A DNA stretch of 64,000 bases from Candidatus Hebobacterum abditum (GCA_029821875.1 JALGXW010000006.1:62001-126000), one strand, 5' to 3'; counted from the stretch's first letter, positions 48,095-64,000 are shown. The notes: generated by a model not told the origin, from the letters alone. Translations and numbers: made by a program.

Positions 48095-51000
48095 CTACTC
48101 CATCAGCCCGAACGCCCGGGCGATGTAGACGGCCATCTGGTCGCGGGTGACGTACCCGGTGGGCCGGTAGTGGCCATCGGGGTAACCAGCGACGATCTCG
48201 TTCTCGAACAGATACTCGACGTGCATGAAGCACCAGTAGCTGGTCGGTACGTCCGGAAAAGCGGCGCCGTCCGGCGGCGTGTAGCCCGCGAGACCTTCAT
48301 CGCCGGTCGGGTCCACGAGGGCGCGTGCGACGAAGACGCTCATCTGGCCCCGGGTCACGTCCCGGTCGGGCTGGTAGCTGCCATCGCCGTATCCCTGGAC
48401 GATGGCATTCACCGCCGCGTACTCGATGTGCTTGTATGCCCAGTGATCAGCTGGGACGTCCGGGAAGGACGCCTCGAGCGGGCCACTGGGCACGCCACTG
48501 TTGCCGCCAGCGAGGCCGCGGGAGATGTACACGGCCATAGCTGCCCGGTCCACGCGGAGGTTCGGCCGGTAGAATCCATCCGGGAAGCCTGAGATGATTC
48601 CGGCCTCGACACAGGCCGCGATCGAGGTGAGGGCCCAGTGGTCGTCGCCGATGTCAAGGAAGGTGACTAGGTCGATGAACGTCGCCGTCACGCTTGTGTT
48701 GCCCCCGACCTCGACCCATACCGGGCTGGCAGAGCCCGAGACTGCGCCCGACCAACCCGAGAACTTCCATCCGTCCGCCGCCACGGCTCCGAGCTGCACC
48801 ACCGTGCCGTATACGTAGTCCTGGGACCAGGGCAAGGCAACGGGAGTGCCATTCACGAGCACCTGCCCCTCGCCTGTAGCCGTGATGCTGAGGGCGTAGG
48901 AGACCCAACCGAAGGACACAGTCACTGACTTGTCGCTGTCGACCACTATGGAAGTCGGGTTGTCGCTCCCCGACAGGTCTCCCGACCAGCCCATGAACTC
49001 TCGGTGGACATCCGGCACAGCCTCCAACGCCACCGTCTCGCCACACAGCACCGCTCCCGACCACGGAAGAGCCTGAGTGACGCCGTCCACAATCACTGAG
49101 CCGCCCTCGCCGTCAACGCTCAGGCTATACTCGATCTGCGAGAAGGTCGCCGTCACGTTCTTGTCCCCGTCGATGCTCAGCATGACAGGGCTGTCACTGC
49201 CTGACAGATCGCCTGTCCAGCCGTCGAACTGCCAGCAGGTGTTGGGTACAGCCTCGAGCGTGACGGTTGTGCCGCAGCCGAATGCACCGCTCCACGGCAG
49301 CGCATGCTCGACGCCGTCCACCATCACGGAGCCGCCCTGATCCCCTGACAAGCTGAGGCCATACTCCAGCAGGTCGAATGTGACCGTGATCGACTTATCG
49401 CTGTCGACGAGGATCGCCGCCGGACTGTCGCTCCCGGCCAGGTCACCCGACCAGGAATCGAACCGGTAGCAGGTGTCCGGCACTGCCTCGAGCGTTGCCG
49501 TGCTCCCGCAGTCCACGCTCCCAGACCAGGGCAGACTGTGGGCGACGCCATCAACGAGAATGGACCCCTCGCCCACTCCGCTAATGCTCAGCGTGTAGGT
49601 CACCTGGCCGAAGTTCGCCTGGACGGACTGATCACCGTCGACTGTCAATGCAACCGGACTGTCTCCTCCTGACAAGTCGCCAGACCAGTTCTCGAGCATC
49701 CAGCAGGTATCGGGGACCGCTTCAATGATCGCCGTGGCGCCGCACAGGTAGGTGTCCTGCCACGGAAGCGACTGCAGTAGCCCATCGACCCGTACTGCGC
49801 CGTCCCCGCTGCCAGTGATGCGGAGCGTGTGCTCGATCTGCGTGAACGTGGCCGTCACAGACTTGTTGCCATCCATGCTGAGCGACTTCGGAGCGGCGGC
49901 ACCGGAGAGATCCCCGGACCAGGAATCGAATTCCCAGCAAGGCTCAGGAGCCACGTCGAGCGTGACGCTCGTGCTACAGACGAAGTCTCCGCTCCACGGC
50001 AGGGACACCGGTGTACCATCGACCACGATCGACCCCTCACCGACACCACTCAGGCTAAGGGTGTACTCAATGGGAGCGAAGTTCGCCGTGATCGACACCG
50101 GACTGTCCATCGACACACTCGTGGGACTCGTCGAACCCGTGAGGTCGCCAGACCACGAGATGAACTCACTGCACCAGTCGGGCACAGCCTCGAGGACCAC
50201 GACCTGGCCGCAGTCGACATCGCCGGACCATGGAAGCGTCCGCGTTGTGCCATCGACGACGACGGAGCCGCTGCCCGTGCCGGCTAGGCTCAACGCGTAC
50301 TGTATCTTGGTGAAGTTGGCCGTCACGAGCTTCGGGGAGTCCATGGTGATGGTGGTCGGGCTGTCGCTGCCAGACAGGTCGTCCGCCCAACCGGCGAACT
50401 CGTAGCACGAAGCCGGCGCGGCCTCGAGCGCGACCAGGGAGCCGGCAGCGATCAGGGCAGACCAGGGGAGGGCCCGCTCCACGCCGTCGACGAACACGGT
50501 GCCGTTGCCGACGCCCTGGAGATCCAGCGTGTAGTAGATCTTGCTGAACTCCGCGGTGATAGACATGTCCGAGTCGAGCGTCACCGCAGTCGGGTTGTCG
50601 GAGCCCGCAAGATCGCCGGACCAGCTGGAGAATTCGTACGTGGCATCGGGGATGGCCTCGAGGCCGACCTCAGTCCCTTTGACAAAGACCTCTGCATAGG
50701 GCAGTGAGCGGCCTACGCCGTCCACAGCGATCTGGCCGTTGCCGCCGTTCAGGGTGAGAGTCCGGGTCGAGGCAAGATGAACAACCTGACCATTGCCTGA
50801 ATCGGCGACCCAGCAGGTATGGTCGTTCTGATTGACGGACACTGAACGCGGGATGCTGAATCCTCCGCCACGCCAGAGCTCGGTGCCGTCTGGCGCAAGG
50901 TGGACAACCTGGTTGTTGCCGAAGTCCGCGACCCAGCACGTGCGGTCAGATTCGTCAACGGCAACCCCGCGAGGGCCGCTGAAGCCACCGCCGCGCCAGA

Positions 51001-51820
51001 GCTCTGTGCCGTTCTCGGCGAGGTGGACAACTTGATTGTTGTCCCGATCTGCCACCCAGCAGGTCCCATTGCTCGAATTCACTGAGACAGACACGGGTCG
51101 GTTGAAGCCATCGCCCCTCCACAGCTCCGCGCCGGCCGCCGACAAGTGAACCACCTGGTTGTTCAGGTGGTCAGCGACCCAACAGGAGCCGTCGACCTGG
51201 TTGACGCTCACCGCGAGGGGTCGGGAGAACCCCGATCCCCGCCAGAGCTCGGACGAATCACTGGACAGATGGACCACCTGGTTGTTGCCATAGTCGGCTA
51301 CCCAGCAGGAACCGTCGACCGAGTTGGCCGAAACACCACGAGGTGAGCTGAAGCCCGCGGTACGGGACAGCTCGGTGCCGTCGGCCGCCAGGTGCACAAC
51401 CTGGTTGTTGAATCTGTCGCCTATCCAACAAGAACCATCGCTGGTGTTGACCGAAGTGCCCCAAGGGCCGTCAAAGGCCGCCCCTTGCCAGAGCTCGGTT
51501 CCATCTTCGGCGAAATGCACCACGACGTCGCCGCCGTGATCGGCCATCCAGCAGGAGCCGTCGGCAGAGCCAGCGGACACTGTGCGCGGCCCTGTGAATG
51601 TACCGCCTCGCCAGAGCTCGATCACATCTTCGGCGCCGCACGTGCTGGCAGCGAAACCGACTACCAGAAAGACGAACAGCATCGCCGTCAGACTGCCGGA
51701 CTTGACTCGGATCAGTCTCGGCCTGTTCGCCGAGGCCCGTGAGGCGATTGCTGAATGTGACCTAGTCAGCATAGGGGAACGATGAATCCCCCTATCTGCT
51801 TGGCACAGTGAGTTGGTCAT
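48095..51820 (-). CDS. Large surface protein: propeller-like repeats, nine bacterial repeats, three SLH domains
   Basis: A 1241-residue exported protein. A signal/TM region (LTAMLFVFLVVGFAAS, about residues 45-60) is followed by seven tandem repeats of about 41 residues (CWVADxGNNQVVHLxxDGTELWRG). These probably form an NHL-like beta-propeller. Nine repeats of about 78 residues follow (List-Bact type, LPWSG...GWSGDLSGSDSP...). Repeats 3 to 7 each carry two cysteines. Three SLH domains close the C-terminus (HWALTSI, HWAYKHI, YWCFMHV, each ending in RxxMAVYI-like). SLH domains bind pyruvylated or other secondary cell wall polymers. ATG 51820 has GGGGGAAG upstream. A TTG two codons earlier is open. 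Confidence 0.88.
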   Translation of the reverse strand: MTNSLCQADRGIHRSPMLTRSHSAIASRASANRPRLIRVKSGSLTAMLFVFLVVGFAASTCGAEDVIELWRGGTFTGPRTVSAGSADGSCWMADHGGDVVVHFAEDGTELWQGAAFDGPWGTSVNTSDGSCWIGDRFNNQVVHLAADGTELSRTAGFSSPRGVSANSVDGSCWVADYGNNQVVHLSSDSSELWRGSGFSRPLAVSVNQVDGSCWVADHLNNQVVHLSAAGAELWRGDGFNRPVSVSVNSSNGTCWVADRDNNQVVHLAENGTELWRGGGFSGPRGVAVDESDRTCWVADFGNNQVVHLAPDGTELWRGGGFSIPRSVSVNQNDHTCWVADSGNGQVVHLASTRTLTLNGGNGQIAVDGVGRSLPYAEVFVKGTEVGLEAIPDATYEFSSWSGDLAGSDNPTAVTLDSDMSITAEFSKIYYTLDLQGVGNGTVFVDGVERALPWSALIAAGSLVALEAAPASCYEFAGWADDLSGSDSPTTITMDSPKLVTANFTKIQYALSLAGTGSGSVVVDGTTRTLPWSGDVDCGQVVVLEAVPDWCSEFISWSGDLTGSTSPTSVSMDSPVSITANFAPIEYTLSLSGVGEGSIVVDGTPVSLPWSGDFVCSTSVTLDVAPEPCWEFDSWSGDLSGAAAPKSLSMDGNKSVTATFTQIEHTLRITGSGDGAVRVDGLLQSLPWQDTYLCGATAIIEAVPDTCWMLENWSGDLSGGDSPVALTVDGDQSVQANFGQVTYTLSISGVGEGSILVDGVAHSLPWSGSVDCGSTATLEAVPDTCYRFDSWSGDLAGSDSPAAILVDSDKSITVTFDLLEYGLSLSGDQGGSVMVDGVEHALPWSGAFGCGTTVTLEAVPNTCWQFDGWTGDLSGSDSPVMLSIDGDKNVTATFSQIEYSLSVDGEGGSVIVDGVTQALPWSGAVLCGETVALEAVPDVHREFMGWSGDLSGSDNPTSIVVDSDKSVTVSFGWVSYALSITATGEGQVLVNGTPVALPWSQDYVYGTVVQLGAVAADGWKFSGWSGAVSGSASPVWVEVGGNTSVTATFIDLVTFLDIGDDHWALTSIAACVEAGIISGFPDGFYRPNLRVDRAAMAVYISRGLAGGNSGVPSGPLEASFPDVPADHWAYKHIEYAAVNAIVQGYGDGSYQPDRDVTRGQMSVFVARALVDPTGDEGLAGYTPPDGAAFPDVPTSYWCFMHVEYLFENEIVAGYPDGHYRPTGYVTRDQMAVYIARAFGLME
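48646..50750 (-). repeat. Nine tandem about 234-base repeats (List-Bact type)
   Basis: These encode about 78-residue units with a VDG...LPWS...LEAVP...SWSGDLSGSDSP...DKSVTATF pattern in the middle of the SLH protein. They probably form a rigid beta stalk. Confidence 0.85.
50750..51604 (-). repeat. Seven tandem 123-base (41-codon) repeats
   Basis: These encode the propeller-like part of the SLH protein. Conserved positions in each unit are Gly-Phe, Pro, Ser-Val, Cys-Trp-Val-Ala-Asp, Asn-Gln-Val-Val-His-Leu and Glu-Leu-Trp-Arg-Gly. Divergence between units is moderate. Confidence 0.85.
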
Positions 51821-52511
51821 GGCCAACTTCCCCCATCACTGTCAGTGAGGATGGCAGTCCTGCGCCCCCAGGCCAGGGTCTCTGCTGCAGACCTACCTAC
51901 TCCGGCACAGGAGCAACAATGAGGCCAACCTGCAGCCGCCCAGCGGCGTGATCGCCCTCCCCTTCATGGACGTATTCCACAAGAGAGCGCCGATCTGAGA
52001 GCAGACCAGTCGTCGGGCGCCTTCGTCGGCGAGGCGGTCAGAGCGGAAAGCTCGACGCGCGCTCTGCTAAGAGGGAGCGCCGGAATACGGCTGCAGTGCC
52101 GCCACTCGCGCCCTACCCGAGGCGTGTGGTAGCATCCATCTGAGTACGCAATCACAGGCCGGATTCGATCTCCCAGACGTCTGGCCCAAACACCAGGCGG
52201 GCTTCCACCGTCCTCGCACCCTGCGCGAGCTCGTGGCCAAGCGAGCTCTGCATATGCTGAGGAGAGATGCCGGCGCGCAGCGACGCGACAGTGAGTTCTG
52301 GGCTCTTAGGGGCAAATGAGTCTCTGGACGGCGCGCCAGGGACACCGGCTGACTGGCCGCTGACGAAACAAAGCTGTCGCCCTCCCATGCGCCGACACCC
52401 ACGCGCGGCAGAGGCGGCCGAGAGAACTGTGTCCCTCGGCAGCCCTCCTGCCCGCTTACGTCTGTCGGCAAGGCTATCTGCGACAGCCTTGCGCTGTCCG
52501 ACCCCGCGCCC
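51821..52511. other. Intergenic region, 691 bases, no clear gene
   Basis: Between two surface-protein genes on the same strand. It contains the palindrome TCACTGTCAGTGA (51836-51848), just upstream of the SLH protein's ribosome-binding site. A stem GCAAGGCT/AGCCTTGC (52468-52492) lies just after the end of the upstream gene. Open frames such as the minus-strand one at 52067-52471 have no ribosome-binding site and no recognisable sequence, so I treat them as chance. Confidence 0.5.
52468..52492 (-). terminator. Stem-loop after the 511-residue surface protein gene
   Basis: GCAAGGCT (52468-52475) and AGCCTTGC (52485-52492) form a perfect 8-base stem with a 9-base loop, 20 bases after the stop codon of the gene at 52512-54047. 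There is no T-run, so its strength as a terminator is uncertain. Confidence 0.4.
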
Positions 52512-54958: not shown

Positions 54959-55753
54959 ATGCTTTCCTTCGTCCTCGATACCTGGCGGAGCCGGGGAGTA
55001 GTCGCGCACTTTGTCGGCGTTCAGTTGACGACCAGTTACCGCACCAAGTCGCTGGGCTTCCTATGGGCGCTACTGGATCCGCTACTGTTCATGTGCGTCT
55101 ACTACATCGTGTTTGGCCGCATCATAGCCATGCGTCCGCTCTCCTTCATGATCCACCTTTTCGTCGGCGTGATTGCCTTTCGTTTCCTCCAGGGCTCGGC
55201 CGCGCAGGCCGCTGGCGTGTTGCGCGCACACGGCGGGCTGATCAAGGAGATCCGTTTCCCGAAGGTCGCCTTACCGCTCTCCGTGATCATCGCGCGCCTC
55301 TTCGACTTCGGGGCTGGCTGGCTCATCGCCATCCCGCTCGGATTCGCGTTCGGCTACCCACCTACTCTGTACTGGCTTGCGATCCCGCTCTTCGTAGCGA
55401 TACAAATCCTGTTCGTTGCCGGCTTCTCACTTGTCACAGCCTACATCGGGCTGTTCTTCGCCGACGTCGAGAACATACTCGGTGTGCTGCTGCGACTGTG
55501 GTTCTACCTGTCGCCAGTGCTGTACGGGCTGGAGTTGGTGCGGCAAAGGACGGAGGGCTCGCCGCTTCTCTATCGGCTCTACCTTTTGAACCCAATGGTC
55601 AGCATCGTTGAGTGCTATCAGGCCTGCGTACAGCGGGCCCAATGGCCAGCCGTGCAGTTCGTCAGCTACGCACTCGTGTCGTCGATCGCCACGTTGCTGA
55701 TCGGCGTGCTCGTCTTTCGTAGGATGGAGGGTCAGATTGCGAAGTACGTATGA
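54959..55753 (+). CDS. wzm: Polysaccharide ABC exporter permease (Wzm/RfbA type)
   Basis: A 264-residue ABC-2 permease with six hydrophobic segments. The N-terminus RSRGVVAHFVGVQLTTSYRTKSLGFLWALLDPLLF is typical of teichoic-acid and O-antigen exporters (TagG/Wzm). It moves lipid-linked polysaccharide across the inner membrane. The ATPase is encoded 55 bases downstream and the glycosyltransferases after it. The ATG at 54959 has a weak ribosome-binding site. Confidence 0.92.
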   Translation: MLSFVLDTWRSRGVVAHFVGVQLTTSYRTKSLGFLWALLDPLLFMCVYYIVFGRIIAMRPLSFMIHLFVGVIAFRFLQGSAAQAAGVLRAHGGLIKEIRFPKVALPLSVIIARLFDFGAGWLIAIPLGFAFGYPPTLYWLAIPLFVAIQILFVAGFSLVTAYIGLFFADVENILGVLLRLWFYLSPVLYGLELVRQRTEGSPLLYRLYLLNPMVSIVECYQACVQRAQWPAVQFVSYALVSSIATLLIGVLVFRRMEGQIAKYV

Positions 55754-55808
55754 CAGGGCATCGAGTCTGTGCTCGTCGCTCCTGCCGACATCGCAGGAGG
55801 CGCCTGTT

Positions 55809-56561
55809 GTGGTAGACGACGTATGGCTCAAGTTCCAGCTGCAGTACTACCGGAAGCGTAATACGCTGCGGAGGACCGCGGTGACGCGGCTGTCCTCGCT
55901 TCTCCGGGGGCAGTGGGGCGAGAAGCGAAAGGACGAATTCTGGGCACTCCGAGGCGTGACCCTCAGCGTCCCGCAAGGCGAGGTGTTGGGACTCGTGGGT
56001 CCCAATGGGGCTGGCAAGAGCACGCTTCTTCGCGTCATCGCGGGGATCTACGCGCCGGACCACGGCCGAGTGACAGTGTGCGGGACAGTGGCTACGCTGC
56101 TGTCATTCGGCGCTGGCTTTGACCTTCGGCGTCCCGGCAGAGAGAACATCTACAAGAACGCCACACTGCTTGGACTCACCAGAGAGTGCATTGATGATCG
56201 GGCGGATGCCATCGTGGCGATGAGCGGACTTGGTAAGTTCATCGATGCGCCTGTCATGACGTACTCCGCGGGGATGCGGGCGAGACTCGGTTTCTCCATT
56301 GCCGTAAACGTGGATCCCGATGTGCTGCTCATTGATGAGGTGGTCGGAGTGGGGGATGAGAGGTTCCGCGCCCGGGTGGGGAACATCTTCGATCGGCTCG
56401 CCAGCAGTGGTCGGACGATCGTATTCGCCACGCACTCGCTGGCACTGCTTGAGCAGTACTGCACTCAAGCCGTATGGATAGAGGAGGGCCAGGTGCGTCT
56501 GCAGGGCGCGCCGTCCGAGGTGGCGAAGGAGTATCTGTCTGCCGCGAAGACGGAAGAATGA
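55809..56561 (+). CDS. wzt: Polysaccharide ABC exporter ATPase (Wzt/TagH type), no C-terminal domain
   Basis: A 250-residue ATPase. Walker A GPNGAGKST (residues 64-72), signature YSAGM (151-155) and Walker B LLIDEVVGVGD (172-182) are present. The long N-terminal extension before the first strand is typical of Wzt/TagH. The frame opens at 55737, inside the permease gene, but AGGAGG (55795-55800) followed by GTG 55809 marks the start. It lacks the C-terminal carbohydrate-binding domain of longer Wzt proteins, so it probably exports without reading the glycan end. It overlaps the next gene by 4 bases (ATGA). Confidence 0.93.
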   Translation: MVDDVWLKFQLQYYRKRNTLRRTAVTRLSSLLRGQWGEKRKDEFWALRGVTLSVPQGEVLGLVGPNGAGKSTLLRVIAGIYAPDHGRVTVCGTVATLLSFGAGFDLRRPGRENIYKNATLLGLTRECIDDRADAIVAMSGLGKFIDAPVMTYSAGMRARLGFSIAVNVDPDVLLIDEVVGVGDERFRARVGNIFDRLASSGRTIVFATHSLALLEQYCTQAVWIEEGQVRLQGAPSEVAKEYLSAAKTEE

Positions 56562-59209
56562 GCGACAGAGGTAGTTCCGACAAGGGGCCGGACGGGGTGT
56601 CGGGGGCCCCGTCTGACCGAGACAGCGCTCCGAGCGTTCGTCACCGGTCATCACCGGTGTCAGGTCCCGCTGAGGATGCTGGCGCGACCGATCTGCTGCG
56701 CCGCGCTGACCCGTGTGAGTTCGATCTCAGCTTCGACATCTTCCAGCGGTATGCAGCTGTTGCGCACCTCATCCAAGCATCGGCCGGCAACATGGCCGAG
56801 CGTCGGCTGCGAGTCCTGGACGTGGGCTCAGGCAGCGACGACTTCCTGCGGCGGTTCCTGCCTGAGGCCCGGTTCGAGGTCTACTTCCTTGACAAGGGGA
56901 TGTCCCCCGAGAGAGCCAGAGAGCTCCACTTCGTCCGAGGCGACGCTGTGTGTCTTCCCTTCACGGCTGGGTTCTTTGACATGACGTGCTCTATCGACCT
57001 TCTCGAACACCTGTTGCCGGCAGATCGCTGCCGAGCGATCGACGAGATGGTTCGGGTCACAAGGGGAGCAGTTGTCATCGCTGCGCCATGTGCAGAGGAC
57101 GGGGTGGCTTTCTACGAGCAACTCGCGAACTCCGTGTACAAGGCGTACTTCGGCGAAGACAACAAGTGGCTTGCAGAACACCGCGACCTCAACCTGCCGC
57201 GTGAAGGTGACATTCTGGAGTATATGCGGCGCAGGCATGGTTGCCGGGGGCGGGTCTTTCCCAATGGCCATCTTCCTCGCTGGAGCCAGATGATCGCCTT
57301 CAACCTGATACTGCGTCGCACGCAGAGCTTGGCCGATTACGCCGCGCTTGTGAGTCGCTTCTACAACCAGCACCTTTATGACTACGACAACAGGGGGCCG
57401 TGCTACCGCCGCGTCTTCCTGCTCGGCGGGCCCGACCACGTGACTCTTCCGTGCCGGGAGGAGGACGCAGACTACCAAGAGCACTACGCGCAGCTAAGGC
57501 AGTTCGTCCAGCTGGGATATGAGATGCTCGGCATCCTGCCCTCCATACGGGCAGCGGGTGGCGTCCGCGAAGTCAAGGAGGCTCTGGAGGACGATCTGTC
57601 TCGGACTCGGGCCGAAGCGTCAGAACTGCGGACCGAGCTGTCGCGGGTTCGGGCCGAGGGGCAGCAGGCGGAGCGCAGAGCATCAGAGCTGCGGGCGGAG
57701 CTGTCGCGGGTCCGGGCCGAAGGGCAGCAGGCAGAGCGCAGAGCGTCAGAACTGCGGACCGAGCTGTCGCGGGTTCGGGCCGAAGGGCAGCAGGCAGAGC
57801 GCCGAGCAGCGGACCTGCTGCGCGATCTGGCGGCCAGCCGGAACGAGAGCGAAGCTGCTCTGAGGGAAGCCGGTGCACGGCTGAGCGAATCCGAGGCGGA
57901 GCTGTCGTCGTTGAGAGGGGAGGCTGGACGTCTGCAGAGCGAACTGGAGGAACAGAATCGGCAGACCGCGAAGGCGCGGGCCGTTGCGCAGCGGCAAGAG
58001 GCGCGCGTGAGAAGGGTCCTCGCCTCCCGGACGTACCGCGCCGGCCAAGTTGTCCTGTTCCCATTCACGTTGGCCCGCGCTGCGCTCCGCGCCGGCGCCA
58101 GAACGAGCCTTCGACCGGGCCTGGGCAAGGATGCGGCACGCGTAGTGCAGTACACGCCGACGGACCCGCAGAATCCCTACTACACGGTCACACTGCGGGC
58201 CCTCGAACGTCTGGGCTGGTCAGTTGCGTGTCAGGACGACACCGAAGCCATTCTCAGACGAATTCGACGCGAGGCCGACGCGCGGTTTCTCGTGCTCTTC
58301 CATCAGTTTGACCCATACATTCATCCCGCGAGGGGACGCTCCGGGCGCGAACGTGCGGACGCGCTCATGAGGGATATGCGGCAGATCAAGCGGGCGGGGG
58401 GCGCTCTTGTCTGGACGCTTCATAACTACCTTCCGCACGATGCAACTTCCGAGGAAGTGGAGCAGGAGTTGCGGCTGCGCAGGTTTGTGAGGACGCACTT
58501 CGACGCAGTTATCGTGCTCAACGAGGCGGGCCGAGCTGAAGCTCGGCGGTTCTTCCCAGACGACATGATAGCGCTCGTGCCTCATGTGAGCTTCAAGGAC
58601 GTCCACGGCCCGAGGGTGTCTCGCGAGGAGGCGCGGAGCAGGTTCGGGTATCCGAAGGACGCATTCTTCTTCGGGAGTTTCGGGGCAATCCGACCCTATA
58701 AAGGTCTGGAGCTGGTCATCGACGCGTTCCGAGACATTGGGCAGGACGAGGCGCGACTTCTCATCGTTGGCGGCGCGAAGGATCAGGACTATGTCCATTC
58801 CCTGCGTCGCCGCGCGGGTGAGGATTGTCGAGTCATCATCCGTGCCGGCCCTGCGGTACCCAGCGCGGACATACCGATCTGGCTTGGTGCCATGGATGTG
58901 GCTGTGTTCGGCTTCACCTCGATCCTCACCTCCGGGTCGGTCATCCTGGCTCTGTCCTACGGGCTGCCGGTCATCGCGCCCAACGTCGGCGGTATCTCTG
59001 AAGTGGTCATCCACGAGGAGAATGGCCTACTGTACGAGGACAACAGCGCCGACTCGCTTCGGCAGGCGATGCAGTCAACGGTTGGCCACCCACTGCTACC
59101 TCACATGCAGTACATGGCAAGGCCATCTCTGGACGAGGTATCCGCGGACAACGTGGCGCGCCAGATGCAGGAGGTGTTCGCCCGAGTTCTGGACGTCTCG
59201 CGAAGCTGA
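56558..59209 (+). CDS. Methyltransferase - coiled-coil - glycosyltransferase fusion protein
   Basis: An 883-residue protein. Residues about 60-200 form a class I SAM methyltransferase (VLDVGSGSDDF, motif I at 87-94; DMTCSIDLLEHL). Residues about 345-490 form a long coiled coil containing three 21-residue units. Residues about 520-883 form a GT4-like glycosyltransferase (FGAIRPYKGLELVIDAF; LALSYGLPVIAPNVGGISEVV). ATG 56558 overlaps the Wzt stop. The longer frame from 56474 is inside wzt. It probably acts on the exported glycan. By analogy with WbdD-type rulers, it might limit chain length, but that is inference. Confidence 0.88.
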   Translation: MSDRGSSDKGPDGVSGAPSDRDSAPSVRHRSSPVSGPAEDAGATDLLRRADPCEFDLSFDIFQRYAAVAHLIQASAGNMAERRLRVLDVGSGSDDFLRRFLPEARFEVYFLDKGMSPERARELHFVRGDAVCLPFTAGFFDMTCSIDLLEHLLPADRCRAIDEMVRVTRGAVVIAAPCAEDGVAFYEQLANSVYKAYFGEDNKWLAEHRDLNLPREGDILEYMRRRHGCRGRVFPNGHLPRWSQMIAFNLILRRTQSLADYAALVSRFYNQHLYDYDNRGPCYRRVFLLGGPDHVTLPCREEDADYQEHYAQLRQFVQLGYEMLGILPSIRAAGGVREVKEALEDDLSRTRAEASELRTELSRVRAEGQQAERRASELRAELSRVRAEGQQAERRASELRTELSRVRAEGQQAERRAADLLRDLAASRNESEAALREAGARLSESEAELSSLRGEAGRLQSELEEQNRQTAKARAVAQRQEARVRRVLASRTYRAGQVVLFPFTLARAALRAGARTSLRPGLGKDAARVVQYTPTDPQNPYYTVTLRALERLGWSVACQDDTEAILRRIRREADARFLVLFHQFDPYIHPARGRSGRERADALMRDMRQIKRAGGALVWTLHNYLPHDATSEEVEQELRLRRFVRTHFDAVIVLNEAGRAEARRFFPDDMIALVPHVSFKDVHGPRVSREEARSRFGYPKDAFFFGSFGAIRPYKGLELVIDAFRDIGQDEARLLIVGGAKDQDYVHSLRRRAGEDCRVIIRAGPAVPSADIPIWLGAMDVAVFGFTSILTSGSVILALSYGLPVIAPNVGGISEVVIHEENGLLYEDNSADSLRQAMQSTVGHPLLPHMQYMARPSLDEVSADNVARQMQEVFARVLDVSRS
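57617..57805 (+). repeat. Three tandem 63-base repeats encoding three heptads each
   Basis: The copies are 57617-57679, 57680-57742 and 57743-57805. Copies 1 and 3 differ at three bases and copies 1 and 2 at seven. Each encodes a 21-residue unit of the pattern xSELRxELSRVRAEGQQAERR. Twenty-one residues are exactly three heptads, so copy-number change would keep the coiled-coil register. Confidence 0.9.
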
Positions 59210-59211
59210 AG

Positions 59212-61377
59212 ATGCCGCCTCGGAGCGGAAGATCGGAAGATGAGGATCAGAGAGTGCCGGCAACGGACATAGTCGTGCCTGTGCACAACTCGCTCTATCA
59301 CGCCCGGCCTTGCGTTGAGAGCGTTCTGCACAACACCAAGCAGCCCTTTCATCTCTACGTCGTGGACGACGGGTCGGACGCGCATGTGCATGCCGAGATG
59401 GCGAGTATACTGGCGCCGCACGGCGACAGGGCCAGTCTCTGCCGCAATCCGACTGCGATCGGCTACTTGAGCAGCGTGAACCTCGGTATCCGGGCCGGCC
59501 AGAACCCGACCGTCGTGTTGCTGAACTCGGATGTGGTTGTGAGCCCCGGCTGGCTGAGTCATCTGCTCTTCCCGTTTGACGACGACCCCGCTGTCGGCAT
59601 CATCAACCCGGTATCGAACTGGGCCAACTGGACGCGCATTCCCTTCGCGCCGGGCTTTACGATTCATGATTACGCAGAGTTCGTAGCAGAGATCGGAGAC
59701 AACGCCTACGCCGACATCTACAACGCCTCCGGCTTCTGCTTTGCGGCAAGACGTACTCTTCTCGAGGAGCTGGGCTTGTTCGACGAGGCCTATGCCCCCG
59801 GATACTGGGAAGAGACCGACCTCTGTCTAAAGGCTCTTGAGCACGGCCATCGGGTCGTGGTCAATCTTGGGAGTTTCGTGTACCACTTCGGCTGGGGCTC
59901 GTTCCGCCCGACGGGACGGAACGAATGGCTGGAGCGCAACCGCGAGATCTTCACCGCGCGGTGGGGGAAGCAGTTCGAGGAGCTCAAGCGCCGATGGCAG
60001 CAGGAGAGGGTGTTGGCGGAACTCGAAGAGGCAGTCCACGCGCGCCAGAGAGAGGTGGAACAGGCCGACACCAGATGGCAGGGCTGGCTCAAGCAGGCGC
60101 GCCGCTTCGGCCTCAGGCACACGGCAAGCGCGATGGCGGCCACTCTGTCGAACGCTCTGCTGCGGTCAGACCGCGATGAAGATGTCGGTGAGCGCTTCGC
60201 GAAGGCGGTCGAGAAGACCATGAGCATGACGGAGAGCGATCGCCCGGCTGAGAACCATAGGCGACTGCAGAAGATTCGAAGGCGTTTCGCAGGACGGGTC
60301 CGCCAGACGAGCCGTCCCGCGACCGCACCATCGGGGCCAGGTCGGCTGCGCGTGGTCTACCTACTTCCCGCGCTCAAGCTGTACGGAGGCATCCTCTCTG
60401 TTCTGCAGATCGTCAATCACCTGGCCCTGGCGGGAGAGCAAGCGAACGTAGCCACCTATGGCGAATGCGACCCGGACCTCCTGCGTGGCCTGCCGCTGTA
60501 CGCGAGTCCGTACTGCTTCCCAAGCCGTAGTGTGATGCTGGAGAACTTCCCCGAATGCGATGTCGTGGTTGCGACCCGATGGGATACGGCGTACGACGCC
60601 ATCATGTTGCAGGAGGCGTATCCGCGAGTGCGGCTCGCATACTTCGTGCAGGACTACGAGCCTGACTTCTACCCGATCGGGAGCCAGCTGTCTCATCGGG
60701 CAGAACTCACGTACCATCTGATCGGCAAGCAGATCGTGAAAACCCAGTGGCTTGCGCGCAAGTTGCGGCGGTTCGACAGCGACGTCGTGCAGATTCCGCT
60801 GGGCCTCAACTTGGACATCTACTACGATTCGGGGAACCCCGCGCGCCAGGAGTGTACGCGGGTGCTAGCCATGGCGAGGCCGACGTCGAAGTACCGCAAC
60901 TACGAGGGTCTGCTGCGGATCTTCACGACTCTTCACGAGGAGAGACCTGATATCGAGCTCTGCCTCTACGGCACAGATCTCGACCCTGAATCACTGCCCT
61001 TTCCCTGCGACTCGCAGGGCCGGCTGTACAGGATGGCGGACGTCGCTGCGCTGCTCAACCGATGCACGATTCTGCTCGACTGCTCCACTTTCCAGGGCTT
61101 CGGTCGTCCCGGCCTGGAGGCCATGGCGACCCGCACGGCCGCTGTTCTCACGCGGAACGGAGGAATCACGGAGTACGCGAAGCACCTTCACAACTGCCTG
61201 CTCGCCGACCCGCTGGATGTCGATGAGAACGTTGCCAAGATCATCCAGCTTGCCGATGAGGTAGATCTGCGGCGTCGCCTGATCGACCGCGGGGTCGAGA
61301 CCGCAAGGCAGTACGACGCCCGACTGGAAGGAGCGCGGACCCGGAGCTTCCTTCGATCCCTGGTGGGACTAGAGTGA
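59212..61377 (+). CDS. Double glycosyltransferase (GT2 N-terminal, GT4 C-terminal)
   Basis: A 721-residue fusion. The N-terminal about 270 residues are a GT2 (TDIVVPVHNSLYHARPCVESVL, VVDDGSDA, VLLNSDVVVSPGWL, ADIYNASGFCFAARR). A charged linker (about 270-365) follows. The C-terminal about 350 residues are a GT4 (RVVYLLPALKLYGGILSVLQIV, VLAMARPTSKYRNYEGLL, STFQGFGRPGLEAMATRTAAV). It begins 3 bases after the previous stop, so it is co-translated. It probably adds two successive sugars to the repeat unit. Confidence 0.9.
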   Translation: MPPRSGRSEDEDQRVPATDIVVPVHNSLYHARPCVESVLHNTKQPFHLYVVDDGSDAHVHAEMASILAPHGDRASLCRNPTAIGYLSSVNLGIRAGQNPTVVLLNSDVVVSPGWLSHLLFPFDDDPAVGIINPVSNWANWTRIPFAPGFTIHDYAEFVAEIGDNAYADIYNASGFCFAARRTLLEELGLFDEAYAPGYWEETDLCLKALEHGHRVVVNLGSFVYHFGWGSFRPTGRNEWLERNREIFTARWGKQFEELKRRWQQERVLAELEEAVHARQREVEQADTRWQGWLKQARRFGLRHTASAMAATLSNALLRSDRDEDVGERFAKAVEKTMSMTESDRPAENHRRLQKIRRRFAGRVRQTSRPATAPSGPGRLRVVYLLPALKLYGGILSVLQIVNHLALAGEQANVATYGECDPDLLRGLPLYASPYCFPSRSVMLENFPECDVVVATRWDTAYDAIMLQEAYPRVRLAYFVQDYEPDFYPIGSQLSHRAELTYHLIGKQIVKTQWLARKLRRFDSDVVQIPLGLNLDIYYDSGNPARQECTRVLAMARPTSKYRNYEGLLRIFTTLHEERPDIELCLYGTDLDPESLPFPCDSQGRLYRMADVAALLNRCTILLDCSTFQGFGRPGLEAMATRTAAVLTRNGGITEYAKHLHNCLLADPLDVDENVAKIIQLADEVDLRRRLIDRGVETARQYDARLEGARTRSFLRSLVGLE

Positions 61378-61490: not shown

Positions 61491-62705
61491 ATGAGGCGAG
61501 AGGCATACGAACTACTCGTTGAGGGTGAGACGCTCTTCTTCCGGCGAGAAGGCTCCGGATCGCTCATCGAGGCGGCCGAAACCTGGAACCAGCTCTACCA
61601 CGCGGTTGGATATGAATGGGCGTGCGCCGTCATCGGGGGGATGGGCAGGGATTCCCTTTCCGTGGTAGATGCCGCCTGCGGGTCCGGCTACGGAAGCGCT
61701 CGCATGGCGGAGCTGTCGTGTGTGAGGTCGGTTCTTGGAGTTGACATCAACCCTGTGCAGCTTGCGTACGCGCGGGAGTGGCACTCCGTTCCGAAGGTGG
61801 AGTTCGTCCGGGGCGATGTCCTACACCTGGACAAGCTGGTGCCGGGACCGGGAGCCGATGTGATAGTGTCGTTCCAGACGATGGAGCATCTCTTCGATCC
61901 TGTGGGGTTCGTCGCAGCCATGCACCGAGGCCTCAGGAAGGACGGGATCGTGCTTCTGGGGACCCCGAGCCACGACGAGCCGGTCTTTCTTAGTCCAGAG
62001 AACCCCTACCATCTCCTCGAATCCAGCCAGGACCTCCTTCACTCCCTGCTCTCCTTCTTCTTCTCGGACATTCGCTTCTTCGACGAGTTGCCTCAGCAGG
62101 AGGTGTTCGAACACCTTACCCTCCGCGCGCCGGATGGGCCGCCACTCCCAAACGCGAACTACGCGATGGCGGCGAGACCCAGGCGTTTCCTCTCGCAGCG
62201 ACGGGTGGAGCGCTTCCGCAACGAGTTTCTGCTGCGCCTCTGGCGCGCCGGCATCGGCGCTCTTCAACGCCGGGCGATAGAGGAACGCAGGGCCGAGCAT
62301 TTCCTGACCGACTGCTACGAGTTCCTCGACCTCGACGATGGCTTCTATCAGCCGGAGTTGAAGTTCGTGTGGACCAAGGAGAAGGCCACACTCACCTTTC
62401 ACTCGGAATCGGAGTCTGCCCGGTGCGGCTTCACCGTCGTGCCCGCGCCTCCCGACGTCTCTGAGGCGAATGCCGTCACCGTCCGGCTGACCGATCCGAA
62501 AGGACGCACGACCGAGTACCATCTGACGAAGCGCCAGGGGTTCGCCATAGAGTTGGAGTGCGAGCAGGGGGCCAATCGTTTTCAACTGGAGGTCGATCGC
62601 ACCTGGACTCCCGCGGAAGACGCGGAGTCCGCTGATATCCGACGCCTCGGCCTCAGGCTGTCGGACTTCTGGCTCGGACAAGGCAGCGGCCCGGGGCAGC
62701 CCTGA
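61491..62705 (+). CDS. SAM-dependent methyltransferase with C-terminal extension
   Basis: A 404-residue protein with a class I methyltransferase core (about residues 45-220: VVDAACGSGYGSARMAEL, DVLHLDKL, VSFQTMEHLFDPVGFVAAM). The C-terminal about 110 residues (LKFVWTKEKATLTF, AVTVRLTDPKGRTTEY) look like a beta domain. It lies 113 bases after the double glycosyltransferase and probably methylates the glycan or its lipid carrier. No membrane segment. Confidence 0.85.
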   Translation: MRREAYELLVEGETLFFRREGSGSLIEAAETWNQLYHAVGYEWACAVIGGMGRDSLSVVDAACGSGYGSARMAELSCVRSVLGVDINPVQLAYAREWHSVPKVEFVRGDVLHLDKLVPGPGADVIVSFQTMEHLFDPVGFVAAMHRGLRKDGIVLLGTPSHDEPVFLSPENPYHLLESSQDLLHSLLSFFFSDIRFFDELPQQEVFEHLTLRAPDGPPLPNANYAMAARPRRFLSQRRVERFRNEFLLRLWRAGIGALQRRAIEERRAEHFLTDCYEFLDLDDGFYQPELKFVWTKEKATLTFHSESESARCGFTVVPAPPDVSEANAVTVRLTDPKGRTTEYHLTKRQGFAIELECEQGANRFQLEVDRTWTPAEDAESADIRRLGLRLSDFWLGQGSGPGQP

Positions 62706-62808: not shown

Positions 62809-64000
62809 CTAACTGCCTAGTCCCCAGTTGCCTGCCACGGGCCGGAGATCGGCCCCCGAGACCGGGAGGCTGAACTGCGCCTCGGCCTCCCCATCGGCGA
62901 GCCGATTCGTGATGTAGAACCGAGCGTGGTGTGGATCGTATAACCCGATGCCGTCTCTTCCGTCGCCGTCCCAATCACCAGCGAGTGGGATGAAGTGCTT
63001 GCCCTGGCTGCCGAGCCGCACGACCAGTGCACCGTCTTCACCACTCAGCTCAGTCCTTAGGTGAAACGCGCTGGTGTCGGGGCAGTAAAGGCCCACGGAA
63101 TCTGCGCCGGCTGCGTTCCAGTCACCCGCCAAAGGGATCCACCCACAGTGGCTTGAGCCGTACCGTACCACGATCTCAGCGTTGCCGGCTTCGAGCGTGT
63201 TGGTGAGGTAGAACTTGCTCGTCTCCGGCGCATAGAGCCCAACTGTGTCCTTGCCGTCCCCGTTCCAGTCGCCAGCGATTGGCTGCCATCCCGTGTCGCG
63301 GGGGCCGAAGCCAAAGATGATCTCCGCCGTGGGTACCTGCGGCCGGTTGGCAAGGTGAAACTGCCCTGACTCTTGATCATAGACTCCCACCGTATCAGTG
63401 CCGTCCCCGTCCCAGTCGCCAGCGACGGGAATGACCCGACGGCTGCCCGGCCCGAAGGGAAACACAGTGGCGATCCTCCCTGGGGCCCCTGACGCCGCGA
63501 GAAAGTACGTGTGCTCTTCGCAATCAAAGAGTGCGACCTGTTCCCCGCCCATGGAAGCGATGGGCGGAGCAGTCTGGAGTGCTTCTATGCGACTCATGTC
63601 ATAGGGCTTGATCAGGTCAGCCCACTCTTCGTCCGTGAACTCTCTCAACGCACCAAAGATCTCGACGTGCTGGTAGATTGGCCGCGGGAATCGAATCGCG
63701 GGTTTCGGCCCGTGGCGACTCTGGTCGTACTGATGTGAGTCCTGGGGGGCACCACTCGGCAAGATGCTGGGGTGAGAGGAATGATGCACCGGCTCTAGGC
63801 CCCGGAAGTAGTACCGCTGGAGGCTAAATCGCTCGAACATGTCCACAAACTGGCACCTCCGCACATGACACTGGTGGGCCGGCCAGTCGTGGTAGTAGAG
63901 CTTCAGCCCCAGCGACTCAAGGTAGTCCTCGTCTTCGAAGCTCGGGTGATGAATGTAGATGAAATCGGTGGCAAGCTCCGCGGCCCGCCCTATCACCCGT
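62809..64000 (-). CDS. Protein with FG-GAP/VCBS-like repeats, 5' end beyond the window
   Basis: At least 395 residues. The frame has no stop up to the window edge. The first codon I can see near the edge is GTG 63996, but it has no ribosome-binding site before it. The N-terminal visible about 140 residues (DFIYIHHPSFEDEDYLE, YHDWPAHQCHVRRC) resemble the second half of a methyltransferase-like domain. The C-terminal part has four to five repeats of about 52 residues with DWDGDGTDTVGVY, DWNGDGKDTVGLY and DWDGDGRDGIGLY, likely calcium-binding loops of a propeller-like fold. It converges on the methyltransferase gene with a 103-base gap. Confidence 0.7.
   Translation of the reverse strand, partial: RVIGRAAELATDFIYIHHPSFEDEDYLESLGLKLYYHDWPAHQCHVRRCQFVDMFERFSLQRYYFRGLEPVHHSSHPSILPSGAPQDSHQYDQSRHGPKPAIRFPRPIYQHVEIFGALREFTDEEWADLIKPYDMSRIEALQTAPPIASMGGEQVALFDCEEHTYFLAASGAPGRIATVFPFGPGSRRVIPVAGDWDGDGTDTVGVYDQESGQFHLANRPQVPTAEIIFGFGPRDTGWQPIAGDWNGDGKDTVGLYAPETSKFYLTNTLEAGNAEIVVRYGSSHCGWIPLAGDWNAAGADSVGLYCPDTSAFHLRTELSGEDGALVVRLGSQGKHFIPLAGDWDGDGRDGIGLYDPHHARFYITNRLADGEAEAQFSLPVSGADLRPVAGNWGLGS

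What the first reader, a model, noticed from the sequence alone, without database searches (positions are those of the whole stretch)
56558..59209. Possible chain-length ruler: methyltransferase, exact three-heptad tandem repeats and glycosyltransferase, coupled to Wzm/Wzt
The gene overlaps wzt by 4 bases. Its coiled coil contains three near-identical 63-base repeats, each exactly three heptads. In E. coli O9a, WbdD joins a methyltransferase and a kinase to a coiled coil whose length sets O-antigen chain length. Here the kinase is replaced by a GT4 domain. Recent repeat copying (copies differ at three to seven of 63 bases) would let the coil length vary without breaking register, so glycan length could be tuned by copy number.
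Basis: partly seen in the sequence, partly recalled or inferred. Interest (0 to 1): 0.7.

Follow-up and report, generated by a model that had tools for sequence, protein, structure and literature searches.

The report
Sugar-chain capping enzyme with repeat-built ruler
A bacterial gene joins a probable methyl-capping enzyme to a sugar-adding enzyme through a long coiled rod partly built of three copied three-heptad blocks; it belongs to a widespread family of likely surface-sugar chain terminators, and a distant relative has its own copied heptads at the same place, so rod length, and perhaps sugar-chain length, may change by copying DNA blocks.

Summary
Three in-frame 63-bp units (57617-57805) differ at 3, 6 and 7 bases. 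They are not very recent: silent sites have diverged (dS 0.18-0.43, dN about 0.02).

The GT4 does not replace WbdD's kinase; it sits at the coil's other end, in the polymerase's place, as in K. pneumoniae O7 ORF6 and O12 WbbB. The MT belongs to a multi-phylum family, mostly MT-coil proteins encoded near wzm-wzt. One Actinomycetota-class relative is also MT-coil-GT; its two contigs end and begin inside one perfect 21-bp (one-heptad) repeat in the coil. Register-preserving repeats have thus been seen twice, though other coil-length differences are not heptads.

Against a full WbdD analogue: this Wzt lacks the carbohydrate-binding module that all 15 relatives' Wzt carry; none was found in the genome. 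Copy-number variation within a population was not testable.

Best reading: a methyl-type terminator fused to a chain-making GT, with the coil as ruler and export possibly not gated by the cap. Activity, ruler action and any effect of repeat number are inferred.

The parts
54959..55753 (+). wzm: ABC-2 type polysaccharide exporter permease
   Evidence: PF01061 5.5e-8; NCBIfam galactan Wzm/RfbD below cut-off
55737..56561 (+). wzt: ATP-binding subunit, 274 aa, ends after the nucleotide-binding domain (no Wzt_C carbohydrate-binding module); true start may be later
   Evidence: PF00005 8.3e-21, no PF14524; no PF14524 in the whole genome; relatives have 154-212 further residues
56558..59209 (+). MT - coiled coil - GT4 fusion gene, 883 aa, ATGA overlap with wzt
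56693..57562 (+). methyltransferase domain of the FD..QRY / LDVG / D..EH / EH..LP / YR family
   Evidence: AF2 mean pLDDT 72.7, nearest PDB folds LahSB, TleD, RebM
57545..58027 (+). predicted coiled coil, aa 330-490, about 24 nm if one continuous helix
57617..57679 (+). 63-bp repeat unit 1 (3 heptads)
57680..57742 (+). 63-bp repeat unit 2
57743..57805 (+). 63-bp repeat unit 3
58013..58126 (+). post-coil basic tail (SRTYRAGQVVLFPFTLARAALRAG), in the position of relatives' YR/MRL tails; membrane role not shown
   Evidence: hydrophobic moment not above shuffles
58151..59206 (+). GT4 glycosyltransferase domain, aa 532-883
   Evidence: PF13692 4.4e-19, PF00534 2.8e-18; best phylum hit, a standalone GT, aligns from aa 532
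59212..61377 (+). next gene: GT2 + WsaF_N/GT4 protein, 721 aa, candidate polymerase partner; counterpart of the GT2...GT4 gene that follows MT-coil in relatives
   Evidence: L067, L232, L237
61491..62705 (+). second methyltransferase with a C-terminal extension of about 140 aa
   Evidence: extension does not match the Wzt CBM profile

Best explanation
The gene encodes a methyl-type chain terminator fused to a glycosyltransferase of the chain-making machinery, in a Wzm/Wzt-dependent surface-glycan locus of an Armatimonadota bacterium that has LpxC. The N-terminal MT would cap the non-reducing end of the growing glycan. The coil (about 161 residues, about 24 nm if one continuous helix) would hold the cap-adding site away from the GT4 and its neighbour GT2...GT4 protein near the membrane, so that only chains long enough to span it are capped. 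Of the coil, 63 residues are three 21-residue blocks that extend it without breaking the heptad register; the other 98 residues alone would fall within the range of the relatives. Because the exporter lacks the cap-binding module, export is probably not gated by the cap. Shown: domain order, repeats and register, family membership, operon order, missing CBM. Inferred: methylation of the glycan end, polymerase role of the GT4, ruler action, any effect of repeat number on glycan length.
For: MT, coil and GT4 in one ORF. Many family MTs carry a C-terminal coil, where predicted 28-106 aa. wzm and/or wzt lie beside or within 6 kb of the MT gene in L067, L168-L171, L173, L225, L227, L229, L232-L237 and L248, from at least three phylum-level groups. 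A GT2...GT4 gene follows in L067, L232, L237, as here. Second MT-coil-GT fusion: L173 + L253, same reading frame, 47-bp exact overlap inside the QEISNLN repeat, and only two places in that genome carry the repeat (GT2); L070 is MT-helical-GT2 in one open frame. Published terminators always sit at the far end of the coil from the polymerase GTs (PMC11231755), O8 WbdD is MT only (PMC3482155), and WbdD coil insertions and truncations raise and lower chain length (PMC5082667). LpxC present in the genome.
Against: Wzt lacks the CBM, whereas all terminated O-polysaccharide examples in PMC11231755 have one and all 15 relatives' Wzt do; no PF14524 in the 95%-complete genome. No sequence match of the MT profile to the solved WbdD structure in PDB and WbdD not among the 50 best folds listed. 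Post-coil tail not detectably amphipathic. GT4 unmodelled by AF2 (mostly pLDDT under 50). The tree does not resolve where the window MT belongs. Sumerlaeota members have short or no predicted coils and no wzm/wzt match nearby.
Confidence: 0.62

Rival explanations
1. Decorating enzyme, not a terminator: the MT methylates the glycan (as the pyruvyltransferase of K. pneumoniae O1 decorates chain ends) without setting length; length follows from the balance of synthesis and export, as in CBM-less galactan systems, and the coil only tethers the two enzymes.
For: Wzt is CBM-less and its second-best NCBIfam match is galactan Wzt (below cut-off). In O1/O2a the CBM-less exporter takes capped and uncapped chains and the cap does not set length (PMC10629545; PMC11231755).
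Against: The MT family lies near CBM-bearing Wzt in every other locus where a Wzt was compared, and a long coil is described as the marker of ruler systems. The window coil is longer than in any relative measured.
Confidence: 0.22
2. The repeats are neutral: an Ala/Arg/Glu-rich linker that tolerates in-frame duplications; repeat number has no effect on glycan length. (Compatible with the best explanation for the rest of the protein.)
For: Coils accept in-frame duplications generally (own knowledge); other family groups differ by 3 or 36 residues, not heptads; the core of the third heptad (G, A) is weak by inspection.
Against: Both clear arrays in family coils are multiples of 21 bp (63 and 21), against 1 in 7 for random in-frame periods, though the number is tiny; dN far below dS between copies shows the repeat protein sequence is constrained; two separate 7-residue gaps between L067 and L168.
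Confidence: 0.4
3. Assembly artefact: the repeat count is wrong, or the L173/L253 break only reflects short reads.
For: Both are draft multi-contig assemblies; an exact overlap of 47 bp at two contig ends is what a collapsed repeat in a k-mer graph gives.
Against: The window units carry 8 distinguishing sites, so they are not identical copies invented by an assembler. For L173/L253, a break with the same repeat sequence at both ends implies that some reads carry more copies than the overlap shows (inference).
Confidence: 0.1

Closest known systems
WbdD of E. coli O9a / O8 (= K. pneumoniae O3 / O5)
   Same: N-terminal MT, then extended coil; wzm/wzt-linked; O8 form is MT only; coil of about 200 A sets modal chain length (PMC3482155, PMC5082667)
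   Different: No kinase here; GT4 fused after the coil; no MT sequence match to the WbdD structure; Wzt without CBM; coil carries copied 21-aa blocks
K. pneumoniae O7 ORF6 (MT-kinase-CBM-coil-GT-GT) and O12 WbbB (Kdo transferase-coil-GT-GT)
   Same: Terminator and chain-making GTs in one polypeptide on opposite sides of a coil (PMC11231755)
   Different: Here the MT runs directly into the coil with no kinase or CBM-like domain, one GT4 module, CBM-less exporter
E. coli O101/O162 MT
   Same: MTase domain plus C-terminal coiled coil, ruler role proposed; its loss changes chain length (PMC13168486)
   Different: No fused GT reported; sequence relation not tested
NeuO poly-psi domain (E. coli K1)
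   Same: Glycan-modifying enzyme with a variable number of tandem heptad repeats (1-31), number tunes activity (PMC3046976)
   Different: Repeats are N-terminal, disordered in the crystal, set catalytic efficiency and on/off switching, not a ruler
K. pneumoniae O1/O2a galactan system
   Same: CBM-less Wzt
   Different: Length set by export/synthesis balance, cap not required (PMC10629545)

Membership tests
Coil-ruler polymerase-terminator systems (WbdD / WbbB / O7 ORF6 type) | Terminal-modification enzyme domain (here MT) at one end | tested here: met
   Pfam and family alignment with SAM-site motif; AF2 class I MT fold. Activity not shown.
Coil-ruler polymerase-terminator systems (WbdD / WbbB / O7 ORF6 type) | Extended coiled coil after the terminator domain | tested here: met
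   aa 330-490, 0 of 200 shuffles reach it; AF2 helices
Coil-ruler polymerase-terminator systems (WbdD / WbbB / O7 ORF6 type) | Polymerising GT at the opposite end of the coil, fused or recruited | tested here: inconclusive
   GT4 present in that position; polymerase activity unknown
Coil-ruler polymerase-terminator systems (WbdD / WbbB / O7 ORF6 type) | Linked to wzm/wzt ABC exporter genes | tested here: met
   Directly downstream, ATGA overlap; same order in relatives
Coil-ruler polymerase-terminator systems (WbdD / WbbB / O7 ORF6 type) | Wzt with C-terminal carbohydrate-binding module recognising the cap | tested here: not met
   No PF14524 in Wzt or genome; no CBM profile match in window plus flanks
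Coil-ruler polymerase-terminator systems (WbdD / WbbB / O7 ORF6 type) | Membrane-associated amphipathic helix after the coil (WbdD) | tested here: inconclusive
   Basic tail present but hydrophobic moment not above shuffles
Coil-ruler polymerase-terminator systems (WbdD / WbbB / O7 ORF6 type) | Coil length determines glycan chain length | not testable with these tools
   Needs bench work
WbdD O9a subtype | Kinase domain between MT and coil | tested here: not met
   No kinase Pfam; MT runs into the coil
WbdD (sequence family) | MT homologous in sequence to WbdD MT | tested here: not met
   Profile A4 finds no WbdD chain in PDB at E up to 0.1
MT-coil family defined here (alignment A4) | FD..QRY / LDVG / D..EH / EH..LP / W / YR motifs plus C-terminal coil | tested here: met
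Variable-number heptad repeat proteins (NeuO-like) | Copy number varies between isolates | not testable with these tools
   No close relative holds the gene; no reads

The most novel reading that the evidence does not exclude
A chain-length ruler that evolves, perhaps varies within populations, by gaining and losing tandem DNA blocks of whole heptads in the coil of a terminator-polymerase fusion, in at least two distant lineages, and in this genome works with an exporter that cannot check the cap, so the coil alone would set length.
Probability: 0.25. Interest if true: 0.78.

Novelty: new variant of a known kind. Interest (0 to 1): 0.55.

Why it matters
Coil length is known to set O-antigen length in engineered WbdD, but how rulers change length in nature is, as far as my searches went, undocumented. 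A repeat-built coil with exact heptad blocks, plus a second such array in a distant relative, offers a natural experiment: compare repeat number with glycan length. The missing cap-binding module would also be an exception to the rule that terminated chains need a CBM-bearing exporter, making it testable whether a ruler can work without cap-gated export.

Tried and rejected
Whole-protein scan of genome contigs found no relative. The plasmid collection has no match to the MT, only partial GT4 matches to the fusion, and only weak MT matches to an L067 query. Relatives in the same genus and family lack the gene. 'Kinase replaced by GT4' rejected on domain order. A hidden CBM in the C-terminal extension of the 61491-62705 methyltransferase rejected (hhalign probability 0.3%). 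Tandem arrays in other family coils that are not multiples of 21 bp (15 bp in L238, 12 bp in L237) and degenerate 21-bp ones (L227, L231) are noted but too weak to count. Long ORFs in L232 and L246 look like MT genes with spurious upstream open frame, not fusions. The tree gave no placement. AF2 of the full protein gave a poor GT4. Literature search for repeat-variable coil rulers found none.

Full report
Observation. The ORF at 56558-59209 (+) encodes 883 aa and overlaps wzt by the ATGA at 56558-56561. Pfam gives a class I methyltransferase at aa 87-169 and a GT4 at aa 689-840. Tandem Repeats Finder finds one strong array in the window, period 63, 3.1 copies, score 323. In register the units are 57617-57679, 57680-57742 and 57743-57805; pairwise base differences are 7, 3 and 6. 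AlphaFold2 with five sequences gives long helices at 327-406 and 412-491 at pLDDT about 73, and leaves the GT4 unmodelled.

Age of the repeats. Six of the eight variable sites are third-codon positions; dS between copies is 0.43, 0.18 and 0.33 while dN is 0.02, 0 and 0.02 (only about 18 silent sites). The copies have persisted long enough to diverge silently while the protein was kept. First halves group units 1 and 3, second halves group units 2 and 3, which suggests exchange or repeated gain and loss between copies (inference from eight sites). This argues against a fast-slipping array at this locus today.

Where it is. The genome has LpxC. The same-family genome G002 has its MT match at the coordinates of CP070816.1, 'Armatimonadota bacterium bin117', so the phylum is Armatimonadota (inference). 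Only 3 of 291 genomes of the phylum carry this MT type at E < 1e-30, and only this one carries the fusion. The locus is wzm, wzt, MT-coil-GT4, GT2...GT4, second MT.

Family. Starting from the closest hits, profiles A3 and A4 found relatives in the Actinomycetota class of L067, the phylum of L068 (Sumerlaeota), the phylum of L071 (Chloroflexota) and the phylum of L072. They share FD..QRY, LDVG, D..EH, EH..LP, W and YR motifs. Many are 320-430 aa with a coil after the MT, predicted 28-106 aa where present; the window's 161 is the longest, and 98 without the repeats. wzm and/or wzt lie beside or within 6 kb of the MT gene in L067, L168-L171, L173, L225, L227, L229, L232-L237 and L248; the Sumerlaeota members show none nearby. 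In L067, L232 and L237 the gene after MT-coil is a GT2...GT4 protein, as in the window.

Second repeat-bearing fusion. In G305 contig C114 carries wzm, wzt with CBM, and an MT whose coil runs into the contig end inside a perfect 21-bp repeat encoding QEISNLN. A search of that genome finds the repeat in two places only: that end and the start of contig C99. The two ends share 47 identical bases; C99 continues in frame through the rest of the coil, a tail (SSVVYRIFSRY) and two GT2 modules. So this is very probably an MT-coil-GT protein too, with a one-heptad array exactly in the coil. That the contigs join is inferred; that the break implies more copies than shown is a further inference. In addition, the coils of L067 and L168 differ by two gaps of seven residues, while other close groups differ by 3 or 36, so register-preserving change is seen but is not a rule.

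Exporter. Wzt here is 274 aa and ends where 15 relatives continue for 154-212 residues. No Wzt_C is found in the genome, and a CBM profile from relatives matches nothing in 103 kb around the locus. Published terminated systems all have the CBM (PMC11231755). CBM-less exporters accept uncapped chains and length then follows the export/synthesis balance (PMC10629545). This is the strongest argument against a full WbdD analogue.

Mechanism and rivals. The likeliest reading is a methyl-type terminator fused to a chain-making GT, with the coil as spacer. It agrees with the published rule that the terminator sits at the far end of the coil from the polymerase (PMC11231755). Each 21-aa unit adds about 3.1 nm to a coil of about 24 nm (arithmetic), against about 20 nm in WbdD (PMC5082667). 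Rivals: a decorating methyltransferase with no length role; neutral linker duplication; assembly artefact. None is excluded.

Novelty. MT-coil-GT fusions and coil rulers are known. New here, as far as my searches went: heptad-register tandem copying in such a coil in two distant members, and a coil terminator beside a CBM-less exporter.

Noticed in passing
L067:1761-3908: The rmlB-like dTDP-glucose 4,6-dehydratase ORF appears to be interrupted by an intein-like insert (CYDEKTRAL ... FCGN before TDEVYGS).
   Followed up: no
L225:1613-3784, L228:1-1725, L229:1077-3137: Family members with a second, different methyltransferase and an intervening domain fused N-terminal of the family MT: possible two-step methylating terminators.
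   Followed up: partly
L070:6534-9224: Gemmataceae (Planctomycetota) ORF joining the MT, a helical stretch and a GT2, cut by the contig end.
   Followed up: partly
window 48095-51826: Protein with nine InlB B-type repeats (Flg_new_2), NHL repeats and three SLH domains: likely S-layer-anchored surface protein.
   Followed up: no
window 62809-63996 and L064:342-1277: Two similar-looking FG-GAP-like repeat proteins on the minus strand after the end of the glycan genes.
   Followed up: no
L168:6907-9196 and L067:7956-10084: Two MT-coil genes in tandem after wzt, each pairing with its counterpart in the other genome (tree): perhaps two different caps or a hetero-oligomeric coil.
   Followed up: partly
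L064:5456-9575: Two adjacent sulfatase-like genes downstream of the glycan locus, similar to each other.
   Followed up: no
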